The notes below the pieces were generated by a model. That model ran no database searches, had not been told where the DNA came from, and was given only the letters and a program-made list of their open reading frames with translations. A program made the position numbers and the translations under genes. Source: Thermoplasmata archaeon (GTDB taxonomy: Archaea; Thermoplasmatota; Thermoplasmata; GCA-020350865). From it: a stretch of 64,000 nucleotides of DNA. Shown here one piece after another: positions 52,313-64,000 of this stretch (positions within the stretch are counted from its first letter, which is position 1; each line of letters starts with the position of its first letter). The DNA is taken from assembly GCA_020348445.1 (NCBI GenBank), contig CP070751.1, positions 252,006 through 316,005 on the forward strand. The letters are read 5' to 3'.

Positions 52313-53248
52313 TTAAAGGCTTCCCAACATCTCCGAGAATGCCTCAAGCCTCAACTTAACCTGCTTTGTTGTTTTTTTTGGCATGTCACCTTGAATCGTG
52401 AGGAACGGGTAGTTCAGATTCTTTCTAAATATATCGTCCTCAAGAAGGTGATGACATGCAAATTGAGTGTAATGGATTATGCCATCCACCCTTCTTCTTT
52501 TAAGTTCTTTTTCGAGGAATTTTAGCCTGAAATCCAGATTTCTGGCAAAGGTATAGTTGCAATAACTTTTTGCAAGTTCGTCGATATTCACCCCTGAAAG
52601 CCTTACAAATTCATAGGGCAGTTCATCGTAAACCACATGAAGCCCAAGCGATGCCAGATTCTCATGAAAATCAGGGTATATGGGAGGCACACCCAAAAGG
52701 GCTATCCTACTTAAGAAGTCGATATCCTCCTCCTTTACATTCTCAAGCAGCCTTTCAAATTCTGAAATGTCCCCTCTAAGATCGCTTGCTGAGACCATGA
52801 TCTCGAATGCCTTTTCTGCGGAAATCTTTCCAGCAATCCTTTTATCGTCGATCTCTAGAATCTTCTTTTTGATTTCCTTTACTTCCTTGAACGCTTTGTG
52901 TTCTTTTATTCCCCCCAAAAAGACGGTGAGCTCCTCCAACTGATCTTTGAGATAATCAGAGTCATCATCAAAAGGATAGAATAAAAAGAAGGTGGGAAGC
53001 CCTTTCATTTCCACCTTTTGCCCGTCGACGAGAGCATTGTGACAATCACCTCCTGCCACAACCACCAGATACTCAAGTGCAAGCTCATTTTTCAGTATCA
53101 TGTCCCTCCAGATGGCGGTCCAAGCACACAGCTTATTTGATGGCTGCAGATTCGATAGAGGTACGAAATTGTTGATATCACAGGGTTTTTTTCCACAGGC
53201 AAATATCAGCTCAGGTGGAATTAAGGCGGTGATGCCTACTTTTGTCAT
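52313..53248 (-). CDS. 2-Hydroxyacyl-CoA dehydratase / benzoyl-CoA reductase subunit-like protein (HgdB/BcrB type)
   Basis: Proteins of this family carry a [4Fe-4S] cluster and take part in radical dehydration or benzoyl-CoA-type reduction. The 311-residue protein has cysteines at ELIFACGKKPCDIN, NKLCAWTAIWRD and TQFACHHLLEDD, consistent with cluster ligands. GGDCHNALVDGQ and GVPPIYPDF are typical of the family. Only one subunit is present, with no partner and no activator ATPase (HgdC-like) in this window. An earlier start at 53311 would lie upstream of a CGATAAATATCG promoter-like box, so ATG 53248 with AGGAAGG before it is preferred. Confidence 0.78.
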   Translation of the reverse strand: MTKVGITALIPPELIFACGKKPCDINNFVPLSNLQPSNKLCAWTAIWRDMILKNELALEYLVVVAGGDCHNALVDGQKVEMKGLPTFFLFYPFDDDSDYLKDQLEELTVFLGGIKEHKAFKEVKEIKKKILEIDDKRIAGKISAEKAFEIMVSASDLRGDISEFERLLENVKEEDIDFLSRIALLGVPPIYPDFHENLASLGLHVVYDELPYEFVRLSGVNIDELAKSYCNYTFARNLDFRLKFLEKELKRRRVDGIIHYTQFACHHLLEDDIFRKNLNYPFLTIQGDMPKKTTKQVKLRLEAFSEMLGSL

Positions 53249-53402
53249 TTTACTTTCCTTCCTGTCAGGGTGGAGAACAAAGACGAATCCGATATTTATC
53301 GTTTTTGACAAACACTTTTAATAGGAATAAGCCCATGTATCTAATACTATTGTGAGCTCAACACAGATGTCTGATTAAAGAGAATATAAAGGGGAGGATC
53401 AA

Positions 53403-53780
53403 ATGAAGGAATTCAAGATTCAGGTAAAACACCAACCAGGAGAATTGGCAAAGGTAACAGAAACACTTGCGGCAAGAGCAGTCAACATTAAGGCAATAGC
53501 CAGTGAAGCTTTGGGGGAGGACGCCTTCCTTAGGGTTGTGACCAATGATGTTAATACAACCACGAAAGCACTGAAAGAATCAGGGACAAAATATGTGCAG
53601 AACGATTTACTGACATTGTCGCTTATAGACAGGCCAGGAGAGTTGGCCAAGGTGGCCAAAAAACTGGGCAAGGCCAAGATAAACATAGAATCCATCTATA
53701 TTTTGGGCCAAAAGGAGGGCAAAACAGAAGTGGCTTTGGTCGTGGATGATATGAAGAAGGCAAGCAACCTTCTTGGTTAA
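53403..53780 (+). CDS. Two-ACT-domain regulatory protein
   Basis: The 125-residue protein is made of two tandem ACT domains, each starting with an amino-acid-binding-like turn: KHQPGELAKVTETLAARAVNIKAI and DRPGELAKVAKKLGKAKINIESI (landmarks PGELAKV and NI-I). ACT domains bind amino acids and control metabolic enzymes. It has no fused enzyme. A GGGGAGG Shine-Dalgarno sequence lies about 6 nt before the ATG. It is probably a stand-alone allosteric partner; the ligand is unknown. Confidence 0.85.
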   Translation: MKEFKIQVKHQPGELAKVTETLAARAVNIKAIASEALGEDAFLRVVTNDVNTTTKALKESGTKYVQNDLLTLSLIDRPGELAKVAKKLGKAKINIESIYILGQKEGKTEVALVVDDMKKASNLLG

Positions 53781-53863: not shown

Positions 53864-54883
53864 ATGCATCTTTCAGATTTCGATTATCAGCTACCTACGC
53901 ACTTAATAGCACAAAGACCTGCGGAACCAAGGGACTCCTCAAGGCTAATGGTCATGCAAAGGGACATAATCGAGCATAAGAAATTTCGGGATTTAAAGGA
54001 TTATTTAGATCGTGGAGACATTTTGATTCTCAACGATTCAAAGGTTTTGCCTGCCAGAATTTTCGGAAAAAAAGTGACAGGCGGGAAGGTGGAAGTTCTT
54101 TTAGTTACTAAAGAAGATGAATCTACTTGGGAATGCCTAATAAAAGGTAAAAACATAAAGGAAAATACACGCCTTTTTTTCGGGGATAATGAATTGGTAG
54201 GGAAAATAATGGAGAGAATCGAGGGAGGAAGATATAGGATAGAATTTGAAGCACAAAAAGATCTAGGGGAAATATTAAAGAGAATCGGAAAAATGCCAAC
54301 CCCGCCTTACATAAAGGAGTTACTTTTGGATCAGGACAGATACCAGACTGTGTACGGTAAAGAAAATGGTTCAATTGCCGCGCCTACGGCGGGTCTGCAT
54401 TTTACTGAAGATTTTCTAGCACAGCTTCGCGAAAAGGGAGTGGTTATTACCCCTCTCACCCTCCATGTCAGTGTGGGAACGTTTCTTCCCGTAAAGGTGA
54501 AATACATAAGGGAACACAAGATGGAACCTGAACTTTTTGAAATAGATAACAAAACTGCAAAAACCATAAATTCAGCAAGGGAAGACAAGAAGAAAATAAT
54601 TGCAGTTGGCACCACCACATTAAAGGCTCTTGAGAGTGCCTGCGATGATAATGGTAGAATTTCCGAAACAAAAGGAGAAAGCGATCTGTTTATTTATCCT
54701 GGCTACGAATTCAAGTTCAAATTGGATGGCCTTCTCACAAATTTTCATCTTCCTAAATCCACGCTTATTATGCTCGTTTCAGCTTTTGCAGGAAAGGATA
54801 CTATACTGGATTCTTATAACGTTGCCATAGAACATTCGTACAGATTCTACAGCTTTGGAGACGCCATGTTGATATTAAAGTGA
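53864..54883 (+). CDS. queA: S-adenosylmethionine:tRNA ribosyltransferase-isomerase QueA
   Basis: QueA adds the epoxycyclopentane ring from SAM to preQ1 already placed in tRNA, the penultimate step of queuosine synthesis in bacteria. The 339-residue protein has LSDFDYQLPTHLIAQRP, RDSSRLMV, LILNDSKVLPARIFG, APTAGLHFTEDF, LHVSVGTFLPV, and NFHLPKSTLIMLVSAFAG, the full family signature and normal length. It overlaps the tgt frame (GTGA at 54880-54883), so the two are coupled. It is not a standard archaeal gene, since archaea normally make archaeosine instead. Family assignment is secure. Confidence 0.95.
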   Translation: MHLSDFDYQLPTHLIAQRPAEPRDSSRLMVMQRDIIEHKKFRDLKDYLDRGDILILNDSKVLPARIFGKKVTGGKVEVLLVTKEDESTWECLIKGKNIKENTRLFFGDNELVGKIMERIEGGRYRIEFEAQKDLGEILKRIGKMPTPPYIKELLLDQDRYQTVYGKENGSIAAPTAGLHFTEDFLAQLREKGVVITPLTLHVSVGTFLPVKVKYIREHKMEPELFEIDNKTAKTINSAREDKKKIIAVGTTTLKALESACDDNGRISETKGESDLFIYPGYEFKFKLDGLLTNFHLPKSTLIMLVSAFAGKDTILDSYNVAIEHSYRFYSFGDAMLILK

Positions 54884-54888
54884 TTATA

Positions 54889-55989
54889 ATGTTCGAAATT
54901 GAATATGAGGACGAAAAGTCAGAGGCAAGGGCAGGAACATTAACCGTCAACAATAGAATCTTCGAAACTCCTGGATTCCTACCTGTTGCCACAAAGGCAG
55001 ATGTAAAGCTCATCTCCCCTGATGAGTTACAGGAGATCGGAGCTTCGGGAGTCATCACAAACGCCCTTGTTCTTTTCCTAAGACCGGGCCTTGAGGTAGT
55101 TGAAGCAGCAGGCGACATTCACAAGTTCATGTCATGGGACGGTATCGTCTTCTCGGACAGCGGCGGCTTTCAGATGCTCAACTCCGACTTTCTTGTGAAG
55201 GTCACAGAAGAACTAGTAACATTTAAATCACCATTTACAGGTTCCATACTTGATTTTTCCCCAGAATTATGCGTTGAAATCCAGATGCGGTTAGGTTCTG
55301 ATATTGCCATGGTACTTGACGACTGCCCTTCATATGGAAGCAGTTACGATGATATCTTAGCATCGACAAAACGAACCCTTTTCTGGGCAAAGAGATTTAG
55401 AGATTCCCATAAAAACCAGTCCCAGGAAGTCTTTGGAATTGTCCAGGGCGGGGTGTTTAAGGATTTGAGGGATAATTGTGCAGAGAGTCTTGTAAAAATG
55501 GATTTTGACGGATACGCGATCGGGGGGCTTTGCATCGGTGAGCCCAAGGATGTGATGCACGAGGTAATCCAGAAAACGACACCTCTTTTACCTCCCCAAA
55601 AACCCAGGTATTTAATGGGTGTGGGTTCCCCGGAGGACATGCTCAAGGCAATATCATGCGGGGTTGACATCTTTGATTCTGTTTTTCCCACAAGAAACGC
55701 CAGGCACAACACTGTGTACACCAAGAACGGAAAGGTGAATTTGGGTAAGGAGAAGTTCAACTCGGATATTGGGCCTATTGATGAAGGATGCAAGTGCTAC
55801 ACCTGCAGCAAGTTTTCACTGTCCTATGTAAATCATCTACTTCGGGAGTACGAGTACTTTGGCATGCGGTTGGCAACCATACACAACCTGCATTTTCTCG
55901 TGAATCTGATGAAGGAGGCAAGAGAGGCCATTTTAGAGGGAAGGTTCGAGGGATTTAAAGGGGAATTTCTACAAAATTATAAATTTTAA
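54889..55989 (+). CDS. tgt: Bacterial-type tRNA-guanine transglycosylase
   Basis: TGT exchanges guanine for preQ1 (or preQ0) in tRNA. The 366-residue protein is bacterial in layout: FSDSGGFQM, VLDDCPSYG (the binding-pocket Asp-x-Cys), GIVQGG, GGLCIGEPK, DSVFPTRNARHN with the nucleophile Asp, and the zinc motif CKCYTCSKF with a distal His in ATIHNLHF. It lacks the C-terminal PUA domain and length (about 500-600 residues) of archaeal TgtA. ATG at 54889 was chosen over GTG 54880. It is coupled to queA. Confidence 0.94.
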   Translation: MFEIEYEDEKSEARAGTLTVNNRIFETPGFLPVATKADVKLISPDELQEIGASGVITNALVLFLRPGLEVVEAAGDIHKFMSWDGIVFSDSGGFQMLNSDFLVKVTEELVTFKSPFTGSILDFSPELCVEIQMRLGSDIAMVLDDCPSYGSSYDDILASTKRTLFWAKRFRDSHKNQSQEVFGIVQGGVFKDLRDNCAESLVKMDFDGYAIGGLCIGEPKDVMHEVIQKTTPLLPPQKPRYLMGVGSPEDMLKAISCGVDIFDSVFPTRNARHNTVYTKNGKVNLGKEKFNSDIGPIDEGCKCYTCSKFSLSYVNHLLREYEYFGMRLATIHNLHFLVNLMKEAREAILEGRFEGFKGEFLQNYKF

Positions 55990-56165: not shown

Positions 56166-59100
56166 ATGGAAAAAGTAAGAAAGAAGAGTTTTAATGGCAG
56201 ATTTAAAAAAGGAATAACCACGGTGTTTATCACCATATTTTTAGTGTCTTCGATGTTTGTACCTTTGGATATGATGCAGGAAGCAAAAGCACATACAGGA
56301 GACAAGATCAGGTCTCCAATGACGACAACGCCACCAACAATAGATGGAAATTTCACTCCTGGGGAATGGAACGATGCGGTAATGATCGATCTCACCACAA
56401 TTCCTGGAAATATGGTGGGCTCATATATGTATGTCATGAACAACGACACTTGTCTTTTCATTCTTTACGATGCTTTCGGTGATAATACCAATGATCCCAT
56501 GGATGGCACGGCTGCGGGATTTGACACCAATCACGATGGAGTAAACGGCCCAAATGATGGTGATGATGATTACTTTTACTTTGGCGGCCCCATGGTAGGC
56601 GAGGGACATTATGATTATAACATGCTTATTATGGATTGGCAGGAGCATTGCTCTCCGTTTTCAGATCCTGGCCTCGCCGCGGCCATGGGATTCAACACAA
56701 CACCCAACAGTGGCAGCGATCACAGAATATATGAATGGTCAATACCCTTGGATCAACTCGATGCATCTCTTGGAGACATTATAGGTTTTGCAGCGGGCTG
56801 TCAATTAATGCCAGGCGTTTATGATGCCGATTCAGGCAACTATGACCAGTGGCCAGTGAATCTACCCCCAATTCCCCTGGATCAATACGGCAATTTAATT
56901 ATAGGAGGCCCATACAACGTTGACATAAAACCAGAAAAACAGACAAAATATGGCCTTGCAGGGCAGGAAACCTCATATAAGTTAAGGATAAACAATACCG
57001 GAATCAACCCTGACATTTTTGACCTCACATACCTTTCATCTCTAGGGTGGAGTGTAACGTTTTACGATGCCAGTTGGAATCCGCTGGTTGATAACGGAGG
57101 TGGCCCTGAGGTGGATACTGGATCCGTAGCAGCGAAAACTTCGGTTGTCATCCATGCTAACATCTCTGTTCCCCTTTTAGCAAATCCTGGTGACATCGAT
57201 ATCACGATAATACAGGGCAATTCATCCGGTGATCCCACTGTTAACGACACCACCAGCTTGAGAACGCAGGTGGTATACAATATAGACTGGTTCGATGGTT
57301 TCGAAGCTGGTTGGGATGCATGGACAGCGCAGGTCATTAGACCGAGTTTCCCCTCTCCAACAATATGGGAGATAGGCGATCCCAGTGGAACAGGACCCGG
57401 CACAGCTTTCAATTACACCAACTGCTCCGGAACCAATATTAATGATGCTTATTACATGAATGCAGACATCTGTTTAATTTCACCCTATGTCCAGCTTGGA
57501 TCAGGATATCAAATATTATCGTTCTATCAATGGTATTATATGGATACAATGGGTGACGATGGCGGTTTCGTGGAGATATCAGTAAATGACAATCCCTGGG
57601 TACAGATCTGGCCAGATATAGAGTATCCATGGGTTGGTGGATATCTAGGTGGTTATAATACTGATGGCTACTCGGGAATAAGCAGTGGCTGGGAATATGA
57701 TGAGTACGATTTAAGCCCATATGCAAACCAGGTCGTACGGGTGAGGTTCCACTTTGCAGCAAGCGACTGGCATGGTGGGGACGACGGATGGTATATTGAT
57801 GATGTTTTTATGGGCAGCCCGCCACCTTACAGACTCGATCTTGAACCAGATTACCAGATAGGAACCGGCAATGCAGGCACAGATGTGAGTTATGTTCTAA
57901 CAGTTACAAATAATGGAGCCGACGATGACGCATACGATCTAAGTAGCGGAGGCACATGGGGCGTGACCATAAGGGATATAACAGATACATGGGATATTTT
58001 CAGCATCTTCGTTGCCAGTGGCAACAGTGCTGACTTCATTGCTAAAGTGACAATACCGGGTTTAGCTTCTCCCGGAGATTTCGATGTTTCCTCCATCAAA
58101 GCCTCTTCCCAGAACGATACCTCAAAGAGTGAAAAGGCTGAGGTTGAAACCAATGTCCCTGAGATACCTCCTTGGTTCGATGATATGGAATTTGGGCCTG
58201 GATGGTGGAAAAATCAAACAGACGGTGATGGCACTGAATGGCAATTGGGAGACCCCTCACTTGGAGCATACGGTCCTCCTAAATCCTATTCACCAATTAA
58301 CTGCTGGGGAACGAACATAGCTTCCAACTACACAATTGGCGGGGAGTGCAATCTTACCACAGCCTATATTGACCTTACATGGGCAGCAAATGCAAATCTA
58401 TCTTTCTGGCACTGGTACGATATAAATGGTTTTTGGACTGATGGTGGATGGGTGGAGGTCAGTGACGATTACGGCAGCACCTGGATACCCATCGAACCTT
58501 TGGGAGGTTACCCCGACATAAATGATTGGGGAATCCCTTGTTATGCAGGAAGCAGCGTTAAGTGGATCAGGGCAGACTTCGACCTCTCTGATTATACAGG
58601 TTCCGTGATACAGCTTCGGTTCCACTTCCTAGATGCCGACTGGGACGGTGTGGAGCGTGCGGGATGGTACGTAGATGACATAATGATATATGCTTCTAAG
58701 TACGGAGTCGATATAGAACCTAATTCCTTTGGCTTTGGGGATGCCGGGGATACTGTCGAGTACATCCTTACCGTGACGAACACAGGTGATTTGGATGATT
58801 CGTTTACTCTTTCAGTTTCCGGAAATACTTGGCCCACCACGATATATGATTCTACTGGAACTTTTGTCATTACCAACACTGGTTTCTTGGGAGCTAATAA
58901 CAGTATCGACATAATGATAAAGGTCGATATACCGATAGGAGCTAACCCGGGAGACTTCGACATTTCCAAAATCACGGCAACATCAGACAACGATACTGGG
59001 ATGTTTGCCAGTGTAAGGCTGGATACTAACTATCCGGTTATGCCACTGTGGTTCGACGATATGGAGTCAGGGAAAGGAGGGTGGCGGCCATGGAACAACA

Positions 59101-62100
59101 ATCGAGGCACTTCATGGCAGCTGGGCAATCCTTCTGGTTTTGGACCGGGTTCAGCCTATTCATTGCCTAACTGCTGGGGCACGAATTTAGTGACCGACTA
59201 CACAACTTCCGCGGAAGCGACATTAAGAATGCCATATTTGGATCTGAGGCTGGCTCAGGAAGCTAATTTGACATTCATGCACTGGTATGATATAAACGGT
59301 GTTTGGAATGATGGAGGTTGGGTGGAGGTGAGCCTTGATAATGGCCAAACATGGATGAGGATATATCCTGAGGGCGGTTATCCTGATATCGATGGCAATT
59401 GGTTTGATGGTTGCTATGCCGGGACAACAGCGGCCTGGACAAAAGCTGAATTCAATCTTACAGCCTTCGTGGGAAATATCATACTCATTCGTTTCAGGCT
59501 CTATGATTACATGTGGGACGGTCCCATGGAGGGAGCCGGCTGGTACATCGACGATGTCAATGTATCAGCTACTTATCTTGCCTATGGCGTTGACCTGACC
59601 CCTGATATAGATTCTATAATCGCCTCTGACGGAACAAGTGTTCTTTATCTTATGACAGCAACCAACATGGGAACCGCAGGTCCAGACACATTCAATCTAA
59701 ACTACCTGGCTATGCTTGGATGGTCGGCGGCATTCTATGATCTTTCAATGACTCCGATAACATCCGTAGGTCCCATTGACACCAGCAATTCAATGGATTT
59801 CTATGTGAATGTGACCATACCAATAGGAGAATTACCTGGAACCATTGAAAGGACCATAGTGATAGCAACCTCGCAAAACGATTCATCCTTCCCTCCAGCC
59901 GATGACAATTCATTTCTGTTCACACAGGTCCTTGCACCGATACTATTTGTAGATGATGATGGTGGTATAGACACAGAGGCCAATTTCACTACAGCCTTAG
60001 ATGATGGAGGTTATAGTTATAATGTGTGGAATTACCAGGTACTTGGCGAATTGAGTTTAAGTGATCTTCAACAACATGAAGTTATTATATGGGGAACTGG
60101 GAACACAGAAGATGATTTGACAGAGGGAACACTTACACCCACAGACAGGATGAACCTCGGTAATTATTTGGATGGCGGTGGTCGCCTTTATCTCTCAAGT
60201 AGCCTTGCAGGTGCGGACGCAGTAAACTATTGGAGTGGAACCGATTTCTGGTTGTCATGGTACCAGACCTATCTGCACTCCGACTTTGTTGATATTTTTG
60301 GAGGCCCCTCTACCATTAATGGAGTAACTTCGGATCCCATTAGCGATGGATTGAATTACAACCTCTACCAAGGAGATTACAATCCAAACCTCATGCAGGT
60401 TTGGACTCACCACAACCCCGTAAATGATGGAATAACGTTTTTCACTGAACCCTGGCCTTCGAATGTTGCTACAAGAGCCGATACCGGGACCAACAGGGTC
60501 GTCTATACTGGATTCGATTTCTCTGCAGTTGACGGGGTCGCAAACAGGGCAACTTTAATGGACAGGATTCTCAAGTGGTTGCTTTTCGGTGACTTGCCCT
60601 ATGTAATCGAGACCGATCCCACCCATGGAGCCAGCGGAATTGTAGTTGATCAAGATGTGGTTGTAATCTACTCCGAGAGTATGAACACGAGTGTGGAACC
60701 AACGTTATCGCAGGTTGGAGGCCCTGATCCAGGTGGATGGACGTTCTCGGGATGGTCCACAACCTACATTACAGACGACACGGCTACCTGGACCCACAAC
60801 AGCTGGTCACCCAGCCAGACTGTCAATATGAGCGTTTCAGGCGGCGAAGACTTAGAGGGGAATTCAGCATCTGAATATCTGTTCAACTTCACTATTGTCG
60901 CATCAGCTGATCCGTGGGCTTTTGCCACAGGACCCACATCAACTGGAACGAACGCGACTTTGCCGCAAATAACATACAATTTCGGTAACAGTCCCACGAA
61001 CGTGCAGATATATTGGAGCAATGATGGCGGCAGCACCTGGAACATGTGGGGTTCAGATAATTCCGTGGACGGTTCATGGACCCCAGGCAGTCCATTATCA
61101 ACGTCAGGTACATACTATTGGTCAGCCAGGGCAATGGGTGGTTCAAGCGAACCTCCACCTAGTGGGCCTGGAGACATCGAGGCAGGCCCATACGTTCTTG
61201 ATATCGATGCACCCACGATATTTTCCACAGATCCTGTAGATGGGGCAACAGATGTGAGCACTGCCGCAGGGACTTATGTTATCGAATTCAGTGAGCCCAT
61301 GAGTTTGACAGGTACAGATCCACTTTCAAATCTTCCGGGTATAATGTGGACCTGGGATTCTTCAGGTCTCTGGCTCAATGGAACATATACTGTTCTTTCA
61401 TCAAGTACAACTTATTACGTGAACCTAACAGACCGGGGATTCATAGATGCAGCGGGCAACCATCTAACAGGGGACATGTACAAGAATTTCACAACCATGT
61501 CAGTTCCCTGGGCCACTGCAACTGGTCCCACATCCTCAGGCACCAATGTTTCAACCCCCACGATCACATATGATCAAACCGACGGTCCCACGAGTGTGGA
61601 GATATACTGGAGTGATAATGGAGGCACCACTTGGAACCTGTGGGGTACCGACTCAAGTGTAGACGGCTCCTGGTCACCAGGCAGTCCATTACCCGCCTCT
61701 GGAACATACTATTGGAGTGCGAGAGCAATAGGCCCTCCAAGTGAATCGGTTCCAATTGATTTCGGAGATATCGAGGCTGGCACTTATGTTCTTGATATAG
61801 ATTCGCCCACGATTATTTCCACAACTCCTTTGGATGAGGCAACAGGTGTAAGTACTGCAGCAGGAACTTATATTATCGAATTCATTGAACCCATGGCCTT
61901 GACTGGAACAGACCCACTTTCGGATCTTCCGGGAGTCTCTTGGAGCTGGGATCCCTTGGGCCTATGGCTTAACGGGACATATACTGCTCTTTCTCCCGGT
62001 ACAACCTACTATGTCAATCTTACGGACCTAGGATTTACTGATGCGTATGGTAATCACCTTACAGGTGATATGTACAAGAATTTCACAACCACCTCTGATC

Positions 62101-64000
62101 CTTGGGCAACTGCAACAGGTCCCACATCCTCAGGCACCAATGATACCACCCCCACCATTACTTACGATCAAGGCAACGGCCCGACGAGTGTAGAGATATA
62201 CTGGAGTGATGATGGCGGTGCGTCTTGGAATCTGTGGGGTACCGACACAAGCGTTGACGGCTCTTGGACACCAGGCAGCCCATTACCTGCCTCCGGAACG
62301 TACTACTGGAGTGCAAGAGCAATAGGTATTCCAAATGAAACGATTCCAAGTGGTGTAGGGGATATCGAGGCAGACTTTTATGTTCTTGATATAGATGGAC
62401 CGACGACATTCTCTACGACACCAGCAGATGGGGCAACAGGTGTTGACATCGCCGCGGGAACGTACGTTATCCAATTTAGCGAGCCAATGACCCTGGTGGG
62501 TACGCCTGATACCAATTTATCCATCATATCATGGATTTGGGATCCATCAGGTCTCTGGCTCAACGGGACTTATACAGGACTCATCTCTGGTGCGACATAC
62601 TATGTCAATTTAACAGATTTAGGATTTACAGATGCGTATGGTAACCACCTCACAGGTGATATGTACAAGAATTTCACAACAGCGGTAGGTGTCACAACTG
62701 CCAATGCAACAGGCCCCATAGGAGGCCCAACAAATGTCGCGGCAATCACGATTATCTACACCACAGCAGGAGGTCCGGCGACAGTGGATCTTTACTACAC
62801 AATGAACACAACCGGACCATACATCTGGACATTAATCGGTACCGATATTTCAGTTGATGGCAATTTTGATTGGACAATACCAGCAGATGGATCATATGGT
62901 TGGCTCGCTGTCTCACCAGACGAGCCGGCGCCTACATCTTCTGATGCACCCGAGGCCTTCTGGTACATTTACGACGGCACACCACCTGAGGTCGTTAGCA
63001 CTGATCCCGTAAACATGACAACTTCGATTTCAGTAGGCCAAGATATTGTGATCACCTTCAACGAGACAATGAACAACGTTACCTTCACTTACACCATAGA
63101 GCCGAGCATAACAGGGCTCTTAGAAGTGTGGAGCGGCGGCAATACTATTTTAACTATCTCCCATGATGACTTCCCAACAGGAACAAGAATCTGGGTGAAC
63201 ATATCAGTAGCAACCGACCTTGCAGGCAATAATTTGAGACCACGGCCGTACTGGTTCTACTTTGACACAGACAATTCTGCCACTGTGACAGGTCCAATCA
63301 CAGTCACCCCAACAAATGATGACACGGTAACTATCACATACACTACTACAGGCAATCCGATCAGTGTTGATCTCTATTACACAACAAATTTGACTGCACC
63401 ATATACCTGGACATTCATGGGCACCGATGACACCCCTGAAAATGGCTTTGGATGGCTCTTAGCTGTGGATGGCTCTTATGGTTGGTTTGCAAATTCCACT
63501 GATGAACTTCCACCCACATCAACAGATGCTCCAGAGGCATCGTACTACATCTATGATGGCACACCACCTGAGGTGGAAAGTACAATCCCTGCAAACAAAT
63601 CCACTGGTGTTCCAATTAACCAGGATATCGTGATTACATTTAACGAGACCATGGATATAGTCACTTTTACATACCAAATTGAACCAACTGTTACGGGCCT
63701 TATAGACACATGGAGTGCATTAAACTCGATTTTGACAATCTCTCATGATGACTTTGCACTTGATACCAGGTATTGGGTGAACATTACATATGCTAGGGAC
63801 TTGGCTGGTAACTTTCTAGACCCATATCCCTTACCCTACTCCATCTACTTCGATACTGCAACAACAGGGGCAGAGGCAACTGGTCCTGTAGGCGGCCCAA
63901 CCAATGTATCTGATATCACGATCACCTACAATACAATTGGGGGACCTTCGAGAGTCTACCTTTGGTACACCACAAATACAACTGCACCCTACACATGGAT
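56166..64000 (+). CDS. Giant secreted multi-domain surface protein, N-terminal 2,611 residues
   Basis: The frame is open from ATG 56166, with GGAGGG 6-7 nt upstream, to the window end. A basic N-terminus and hydrophobic stretch (residues about 17-42) form a signal peptide. Domains in order: CBM9/DOMON-like (about 50-250, TIDGNFTPGEWNDA); NEW3/CARDB-like beta domains (about 250-369, 556-663, 846-955, 1140-1255). These alternate with three MAM/jelly-roll-like modules (about 374-555, 665-843, 958-1135) marked by WFDDME, CWGTN and GWYIDD. Then come a GATase/ThuA-like segment (about 1259-1475, ILFVDDDGGIDTE), a Big_5-like domain, and Ig/Big_5-like repeats from about 1587. Many N-x-S/T sequons are present. 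It probably forms a surface layer, adhesin or sugar-binding fibre. Confidence 0.85.
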   Translation, partial: MEKVRKKSFNGRFKKGITTVFITIFLVSSMFVPLDMMQEAKAHTGDKIRSPMTTTPPTIDGNFTPGEWNDAVMIDLTTIPGNMVGSYMYVMNNDTCLFILYDAFGDNTNDPMDGTAAGFDTNHDGVNGPNDGDDDYFYFGGPMVGEGHYDYNMLIMDWQEHCSPFSDPGLAAAMGFNTTPNSGSDHRIYEWSIPLDQLDASLGDIIGFAAGCQLMPGVYDADSGNYDQWPVNLPPIPLDQYGNLIIGGPYNVDIKPEKQTKYGLAGQETSYKLRINNTGINPDIFDLTYLSSLGWSVTFYDASWNPLVDNGGGPEVDTGSVAAKTSVVIHANISVPLLANPGDIDITIIQGNSSGDPTVNDTTSLRTQVVYNIDWFDGFEAGWDAWTAQVIRPSFPSPTIWEIGDPSGTGPGTAFNYTNCSGTNINDAYYMNADICLISPYVQLGSGYQILSFYQWYYMDTMGDDGGFVEISVNDNPWVQIWPDIEYPWVGGYLGGYNTDGYSGISSGWEYDEYDLSPYANQVVRVRFHFAASDWHGGDDGWYIDDVFMGSPPPYRLDLEPDYQIGTGNAGTDVSYVLTVTNNGADDDAYDLSSGGTWGVTIRDITDTWDIFSIFVASGNSADFIAKVTIPGLASPGDFDVSSIKASSQNDTSKSEKAEVETNVPEIPPWFDDMEFGPGWWKNQTDGDGTEWQLGDPSLGAYGPPKSYSPINCWGTNIASNYTIGGECNLTTAYIDLTWAANANLSFWHWYDINGFWTDGGWVEVSDDYGSTWIPIEPLGGYPDINDWGIPCYAGSSVKWIRADFDLSDYTGSVIQLRFHFLDADWDGVERAGWYVDDIMIYASKYGVDIEPNSFGFGDAGDTVEYILTVTNTGDLDDSFTLSVSGNTWPTTIYDSTGTFVITNTGFLGANNSIDIMIKVDIPIGANPGDFDISKITATSDNDTGMFASVRLDTNYPVMPLWFDDMESGKGGWRPWNNNRGTSWQLGNPSGFGPGSAYSLPNCWGTNLVTDYTTSAEATLRMPYLDLRLAQEANLTFMHWYDINGVWNDGGWVEVSLDNGQTWMRIYPEGGYPDIDGNWFDGCYAGTTAAWTKAEFNLTAFVGNIILIRFRLYDYMWDGPMEGAGWYIDDVNVSATYLAYGVDLTPDIDSIIASDGTSVLYLMTATNMGTAGPDTFNLNYLAMLGWSAAFYDLSMTPITSVGPIDTSNSMDFYVNVTIPIGELPGTIERTIVIATSQNDSSFPPADDNSFLFTQVLAPILFVDDDGGIDTEANFTTALDDGGYSYNVWNYQVLGELSLSDLQQHEVIIWGTGNTEDDLTEGTLTPTDRMNLGNYLDGGGRLYLSSSLAGADAVNYWSGTDFWLSWYQTYLHSDFVDIFGGPSTINGVTSDPISDGLNYNLYQGDYNPNLMQVWTHHNPVNDGITFFTEPWPSNVATRADTGTNRVVYTGFDFSAVDGVANRATLMDRILKWLLFGDLPYVIETDPTHGASGIVVDQDVVVIYSESMNTSVEPTLSQVGGPDPGGWTFSGWSTTYITDDTATWTHNSWSPSQTVNMSVSGGEDLEGNSASEYLFNFTIVASADPWAFATGPTSTGTNATLPQITYNFGNSPTNVQIYWSNDGGSTWNMWGSDNSVDGSWTPGSPLSTSGTYYWSARAMGGSSEPPPSGPGDIEAGPYVLDIDAPTIFSTDPVDGATDVSTAAGTYVIEFSEPMSLTGTDPLSNLPGIMWTWDSSGLWLNGTYTVLSSSTTYYVNLTDRGFIDAAGNHLTGDMYKNFTTMSVPWATATGPTSSGTNVSTPTITYDQTDGPTSVEIYWSDNGGTTWNLWGTDSSVDGSWSPGSPLPASGTYYWSARAIGPPSESVPIDFGDIEAGTYVLDIDSPTIISTTPLDEATGVSTAAGTYIIEFIEPMALTGTDPLSDLPGVSWSWDPLGLWLNGTYTALSPGTTYYVNLTDLGFTDAYGNHLTGDMYKNFTTTSDPWATATGPTSSGTNDTTPTITYDQGNGPTSVEIYWSDDGGASWNLWGTDTSVDGSWTPGSPLPASGTYYWSARAIGIPNETIPSGVGDIEADFYVLDIDGPTTFSTTPADGATGVDIAAGTYVIQFSEPMTLVGTPDTNLSIISWIWDPSGLWLNGTYTGLISGATYYVNLTDLGFTDAYGNHLTGDMYKNFTTAVGVTTANATGPIGGPTNVAAITIIYTTAGGPATVDLYYTMNTTGPYIWTLIGTDISVDGNFDWTIPADGSYGWLAVSPDEPAPTSSDAPEAFWYIYDGTPPEVVSTDPVNMTTSISVGQDIVITFNETMNNVTFTYTIEPSITGLLEVWSGGNTILTISHDDFPTGTRIWVNISVATDLAGNNLRPRPYWFYFDTDNSATVTGPITVTPTNDDTVTITYTTTGNPISVDLYYTTNLTAPYTWTFMGTDDTPENGFGWLLAVDGSYGWFANSTDELPPTSTDAPEASYYIYDGTPPEVESTIPANKSTGVPINQDIVITFNETMDIVTFTYQIEPTVTGLIDTWSALNSILTISHDDFALDTRYWVNITYARDLAGNFLDPYPLPYSIYFDTATTGAEATGPVGGPTNVSDITITYNTIGGPSRVYLWYTTNTTAPYTW
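60924..64000 (+). repeat. Tandem 198-residue repeats in the giant surface protein
   Basis: Units begin at the ATGP motif at 60924, 61518, 62112 and 62706, each exactly 594 bases apart. Diverged units follow at 63285 (579 bases later) and 63876 (591 bases later). Each unit combines a fibronectin-like half with YWSxDGGxxW and YYWSARA marks in units 1-3 and a Big_5-like half ending TGDMYKNFTT. Near-identical DNA blocks recur between units 1 to 3, for example around GATATGTACAAGAATTTCAC, which implies recent duplication or gene conversion. The array continues past the window edge. Confidence 0.85.

What the first reader, a model, noticed from the sequence alone, without database searches (positions are those of the whole stretch)
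53864..55989. Bacterial-type queuosine pair queA-tgt in an archaeal genome
Seen: a full-length QueA and a PUA-less, bacterial-layout TGT overlap on the plus strand among otherwise archaeal genes with archaeal promoters. Known: archaea typically use a larger TgtA to place preQ0 at position 15 for archaeosine, and QueA is a bacterial queuosine enzyme. Inference: this lineage may make queuosine or epoxyqueuosine at position 34 in addition to or instead of archaeosine, probably after gene transfer from bacteria. No preQ1 synthesis genes are in the window.
Basis: partly seen in the sequence, partly recalled or inferred. Interest (0 to 1): 0.65.

Follow-up and report, generated by a model that had tools for sequence, protein, structure and literature searches.

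The report
Queuosine-making genes in an archaeon
This archaeon carries intact-looking genes for queuosine, a tRNA modification usually credited to bacteria, alongside the normal archaeal archaeosine genes; close relatives share them, so they are a long-standing archaeal trait rather than contamination or a fresh bacterial import.

Summary
The window encodes a full QueA (53864-54883 +) and, directly after it, a PUA-less tRNA-guanine transglycosylase of the position-34 type (54880-55989 +). The genome is a Thermoplasmatota MAG (class Thermoplasmata, inferred). It also encodes QueH, QueC-QueE, the archaeal TgtA and ArcS, and tRNAs for all four GUN anticodons. So it has the tools for archaeosine at position 15 and, by inference, queuosine at position 34.

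QueA exceeds the family cut-off in 58 of 390 same-phylum genomes. The Tgt tree separates 24 archaeal from 25 bacterial rows (SH-aLRT 99.9); for QueA an archaeal clade is not rejected. Codon use is ordinary. A same-genus genome keeps the gene order. An ancient transfer remains possible. Queuosine genes were already reported in 34 archaeal genomes (PMC8204110), so the kind is not new.

Two details look new. QueF (makes preQ1) and the YhhQ transporter (imports it) never co-occur among 20 queuosine-gene-bearing relatives; this order has neither, nor QueT, so its preQ1 source is unknown. A tandem-ACT gene lies directly upstream of queA-tgt in five QueF-less genomes. No tRNA chemistry has been measured.

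The parts
53403..53780 (+). Tandem-ACT-domain protein, 125 aa, first gene of a likely ACT-queA-tgt operon; role inferred as small-molecule sensor or regulator
   Evidence: Pfam ACT, two stretches; adjacent to queA in G000, G001, G015, G034 and G025 at 54-89% identity; looser homologues elsewhere, not tied to queA
53864..54883 (+). [quoted passage not shown]
   Evidence: NF001140, TIGR00113 and PF02547 over cut-off; full-length match to solved bacterial QueA structures 1yy3 and 1vky
54880..55989 (+). tgt, position-34-type tRNA-guanine transglycosylase, 369 aa (homologues start at ATG 54889)
   Evidence: TIGR00430 over cut-off, TIGR00432 far below; Asp93, Cys149 and Ile219 (equivalents of Z. mobilis Asp102, Cys158, Val233), Asp266 nucleophile and Zn motif present; best PDB match 2ash
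52313..53311 (-). HGD-D-family Fe-S reductase-like gene, divergent from the operon; probably not part of the pathway
   Evidence: PF06050; next to the operon only in this genus; only weak similarity to double-cubane protein 6eno

Best explanation
The locus is the tRNA-modifying part of an archaeal queuosine pathway. The cell makes preQ0 for archaeosine (QueE-QueC, then TgtA and ArcS at position 15). Separately, the small Tgt exchanges G34 for preQ1 in tRNAs with GUN anticodons, QueA adds the epoxycyclopentane ring from SAM, and QueH reduces epoxyqueuosine to queuosine. In this order preQ1 is probably imported or made by an unidentified protein, because QueF, YhhQ and QueT are not found. Gene content and active-site residues are shown; the chemistry, the position-34 target and the preQ1 source are inferred.
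For: Both proteins pass equivalog cut-offs. The Tgt pocket has Cys149 at the Cys158 site and Ile219 at the Val233 site; in Z. mobilis Tgt these positions govern preQ1 affinity and room for queuine (PMC3660597). QueH is encoded and matches T. maritima QueH structures at 2e-33 with its cysteine motifs largely aligned. Across 60 relatives QueA and QueH co-occur (18 both, 1 QueA only, 1 QueH only, Fisher p 4e-13), and QueF (13) and YhhQ (3) occur only in that set. TgtA and ArcS exceed their cut-offs, and QueC has a QueE-like neighbour. tRNAs Tyr GTA, Asn GTT, Asp GTC and His GTG are encoded.
Against: No preQ1 source is identified in this genome or in the other two of its order. No tRNA mass spectrometry exists. 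QueH, QueC, TgtA and ArcS lie elsewhere on a scaffold apparently joined with 100-N spacers, so their link to this window rests on binning (completeness 81.7%, contamination 3.8%). QueD was not searched.
Confidence: 0.82

Rival explanations
1. The pair is bacterial contamination or a chimeric join.
For: The source is a MAG scaffold with N spacers elsewhere.
Against: The 64 kb window has no N; the order HGD-D, ACT, queA is conserved in another genome of the genus; codon use is typical; the proteins fall among archaeal rows.
Confidence: 0.02
2. The genes came recently from a bacterium into this lineage alone.
For: QueA and this Tgt type are otherwise mainly bacterial; one same-phylum QueA row (G369) falls on the bacterial side of the tree, so separate transfers do happen.
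Against: 58 of 390 same-phylum genomes have QueA over cut-off; Tgt splits archaea from bacteria at 99.9; an archaeal QueA clade is not rejected, p-AU 0.75; the nearest rows of the window's QueA and Tgt are archaeal.
Confidence: 0.05
3. The pathway ends at preQ1 or epoxyqueuosine, or is a vestige without substrate in this order.
For: No QueF, YhhQ or QueT in the three genomes of the order.
Against: QueA, Tgt and QueH are all intact with conserved motifs; decay would be expected if no substrate were available.
Confidence: 0.1

Closest known systems
Queuosine genes QueA-QueH-Tgt in DPANN and Methanosarcinales archaea (PMC8204110)
   Same: Same three enzyme families in archaeal genomes, with queA and tgt close together
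   Different: That report names DPANN and Methanosarcinales; here the genes are spread over Thermoplasmatota, QueH lies far from queA-tgt, and a tandem-ACT gene precedes queA in QueF-less genomes
Bacterial queA-tgt gene pair (Bacillota)
   Same: Same order queA then tgt, usually close spacing, about 50% (QueA) and 45% (Tgt) identity
   Different: Archaeal Tgt rows form a separate side of the tree; the cell also has TgtA and ArcS
Archaeal archaeosine pathway (TgtA, ArcS)
   Same: Shares preQ0 and the transglycosylase fold; encoded in the same genome
   Different: The window Tgt lacks PUA and C2 domains and scores far below the TgtA cut-off

Membership tests
QueA | Full-length match over equivalog cut-off | tested here: met
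   NF001140 443 bits vs 324, TIGR00113 403 vs 267
QueA | Transfers the ribosyl group of SAM to preQ1-tRNA | not testable with these tools
   Needs enzyme assay
Position-34 Tgt (bTGT) | TIGR00430 over cut-off, no PUA domain | tested here: met
   442 bits vs 306.75; Pfam shows TGT domain only
Position-34 Tgt (bTGT) | Catalytic Asp pair, Zn motif, Cys at site 158 and a bulky residue at site 233 | tested here: met
   Asp93, Asp266, CKCYTC and downstream His, Cys149, Ile219
TgtA (archaeosine Tgt) | TIGR00432 over cut-off with C2 and PUA domains | tested here: not met
   146 bits vs 350, domains absent; the true TgtA is elsewhere, 575 bits
Queuosine pathway | Epoxyqueuosine reductase present (QueG or QueH) | tested here: met
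   QueH at G000:C1:5095080-5095595
Queuosine pathway | Source of preQ1: QueF or a known transporter | tested here: not met
   No QueF even at E 10 with a class profile; no YhhQ or QueT
Queuosine pathway | tRNAs with GUN anticodons | tested here: met
   Tyr, Asn, Asp, His found
Queuosine pathway | Q or oQ present at position 34 of tRNA | not testable with these tools
   Needs LC-MS

The most novel reading that the evidence does not exclude
This Thermoplasmatota order supplies preQ1 by an unknown route, either a new preQ0 reductase that replaces QueF or a new transporter family, and the tandem-ACT protein encoded with queA-tgt senses a pathway metabolite.
Probability: 0.3. Interest if true: 0.62.

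Novelty: new member of a known kind. Interest (0 to 1): 0.47.

Why it matters
Papers as late as 2026 (PMC13329287) place queuosine in Bacteria and Eukarya and archaeosine in Archaea. A widespread set of queuosine genes in archaea that also make archaeosine would mean one cell runs two deazaguanine tRNA modifications from one precursor. The complementary pattern of QueF and YhhQ, and their joint absence here, point to a missing preQ1 supplier.

Tried and rejected
HGD-D gene as a nitrile reductase replacing QueF: it is adjacent only in this genus, absent from the contig holding queA in G002, and only weakly like the double-cubane protein; kept as a low-probability idea. A queA pseudogene in the sister genome G001: the gene is cut by a run of 100 N, so it is an assembly gap. 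Rooting or dating the transfer: not possible with this bacterial sample, which is mostly Bacillota. PMC10966956 review: not held. Promoter and terminator scan: at chance level, and made for bacterial promoters.

Full report
Observation. ORF 53864-54883 (+) is a full-length QueA and ORF 54880-55989 (+) a position-34-type Tgt by curated equivalog cut-offs and Pfam. Both align end to end with solved bacterial enzymes. The Tgt scores 146 bits against the TgtA model, whose cut-off is 350, and carries no PUA domain. The predicted 4-nt overlap depends on a GTG start; homologues begin at ATG 54889.

Where it lies. The window is G000:C1:252006-316005 of a 5.16 Mb, 81.7% complete assembly. The genome's relatives include single-contig genomes of 1,486,778 and 1,437,090 bp; from my own knowledge the first is the size of Aciduliprofundum boonei, so the class is taken to be Thermoplasmata and the phylum Thermoplasmatota. 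No tool named the record. The '1 contig' assembly holds 100-N runs (16S gene in L001), so it is probably scaffolded; the window itself has no N. In G001, same genus, the neighbouring genes, ACT and queA follow in the same order until a 100-N gap inside queA. Codon use of both genes is typical of the window. Contamination is therefore very unlikely.

Rest of the pathway. QueH is at C1:5095080-5095595 and matches T. maritima QueH with its cysteine motifs largely aligned. QueC lies at 2724760-2725401 with a QueE-like radical SAM gene beside it. TgtA (3874866, 575 bits) and ArcS (4429695, 489 bits) both exceed their cut-offs. tRNAs with anticodons GTA, GTT, GTC and GTG are present. The Tgt pocket has Cys149 and Ile219 at the sites of Z. 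mobilis Cys158 and Val233; PMC3660597 shows these sites govern preQ1 affinity and room for queuine. The expected substrate is thus preQ1, not queuine. This is inference from residues.

Distribution. In 60 relatives, QueA (true type) and QueH co-occur: 18 both, 1 QueA only, 1 QueH only, 40 neither, Fisher p 4e-13. Genomes are related, so the p-value overstates independence. QueF is found over its cut-off in 13 of these 20 and in none of the other 40; YhhQ in 3 of the 20, close to queA-tgt, and in none of the others. The two never co-occur. Four of the 20 have neither: G000, G001, G002 (the whole sampled order) and G054, whose genus mate has QueF. QueT was found in none of the 60. A profile made from class QueF sequences finds none in the six QueF-less genomes tested at E up to 10 while finding G014's at 8e-41. 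In the phylum, 58 of 390 genomes exceed the QueA cut-off.

ACT gene. A 125-aa tandem-ACT protein (53403-53780 +) is directly upstream of queA in G000, G001, G015, G034 and G025, all QueF-less, at 54-89% identity; no homologue was found beside queA in the QueF-bearing genomes fetched here. Looser ACT homologues occur in class genomes without queA, so the family is not specific to queuosine. Its role as a sensor is a guess from the domain.

Origin. Quick maximum-likelihood trees were made. For Tgt, 24 archaeal rows (23 same-phylum, Methanoperedens) stand against 25 bacterial rows with SH-aLRT 99.9. For QueA, most archaeal rows lie apart from a bacterial group (97), with one same-phylum row (G369) on the bacterial side; with four long-branch rows removed, holding all archaeal rows together is not rejected and gave a higher likelihood than the free search (p-AU 0.75). 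The bacterial sample is mainly Bacillota plus a few other phyla, so an ancient transfer cannot be excluded or dated. A recent, lineage-specific transfer is not supported.

Literature. PMC8204110 reported complete or partial queuosine pathways in 34 archaeal genomes, DPANN and Methanosarcinales being named. No held paper ties queuosine to Aciduliprofundum or Methanoperedens. Four held papers contain both 'queuosine' and 'Thermoplasmata'; the two I opened do not describe this. PMC11130926 states that many organisms predicted to salvage precursors lack known transporters, which fits the gap seen here.

Verdict. A real and probably functional archaeal queuosine pathway, an extension of a known phenomenon, with an unsolved preQ1 source and a recurrent ACT-queA-tgt arrangement as the parts worth following.

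Noticed in passing
G000:C1:4640571-4643566 (L319:4571-7567): Dense array of 19 tRNA genes in 3 kb, with an HNH-like ORF, resembling a viral tRNA island; it holds Tyr, Asn, Asp and His GUN tRNAs.
   Followed up: partly
L017, L018, L020-L022, L025 and others (families f9, f10, f17, f21, f23): A divergent QueA-like family (25-30% identity, some in 548-783 aa frames) in genomes of the class without the position-34-type tgt; plasmids of Salmonella, Bacteroides and Sinorhizobium carry distant QueA-like genes too. Function unknown.
   Followed up: no
L001:1696-1795 and L027:1734-1833: Runs of 100 N in G000 and G001: the 'single contig' genomes appear to be scaffolded pieces, cutting the 16S gene in one and queA in the other.
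   Followed up: partly
L187:8310-10535: In G004 a 741-aa ORF with no Pfam match sits between queA and tgt.
   Followed up: no
L082-L091: QueF in this class comes in two sequence types, PEFTCLCP and DELTALCPKTGLPDF, about 38% identical.
   Followed up: no
window 12000-46000: A lower-GC stretch (31-41%) with sugar-transfer and methyltransferase-type genes between flanks mostly of 41-48%.
   Followed up: no
window 56166-64000 (+): A giant, probably surface-exposed protein with MAM-like domains starts after tgt and runs off the window.
   Followed up: no
L200 and L201 (G002): Two QueH loci in G002, one full length and one cut by a contig end.
   Followed up: no
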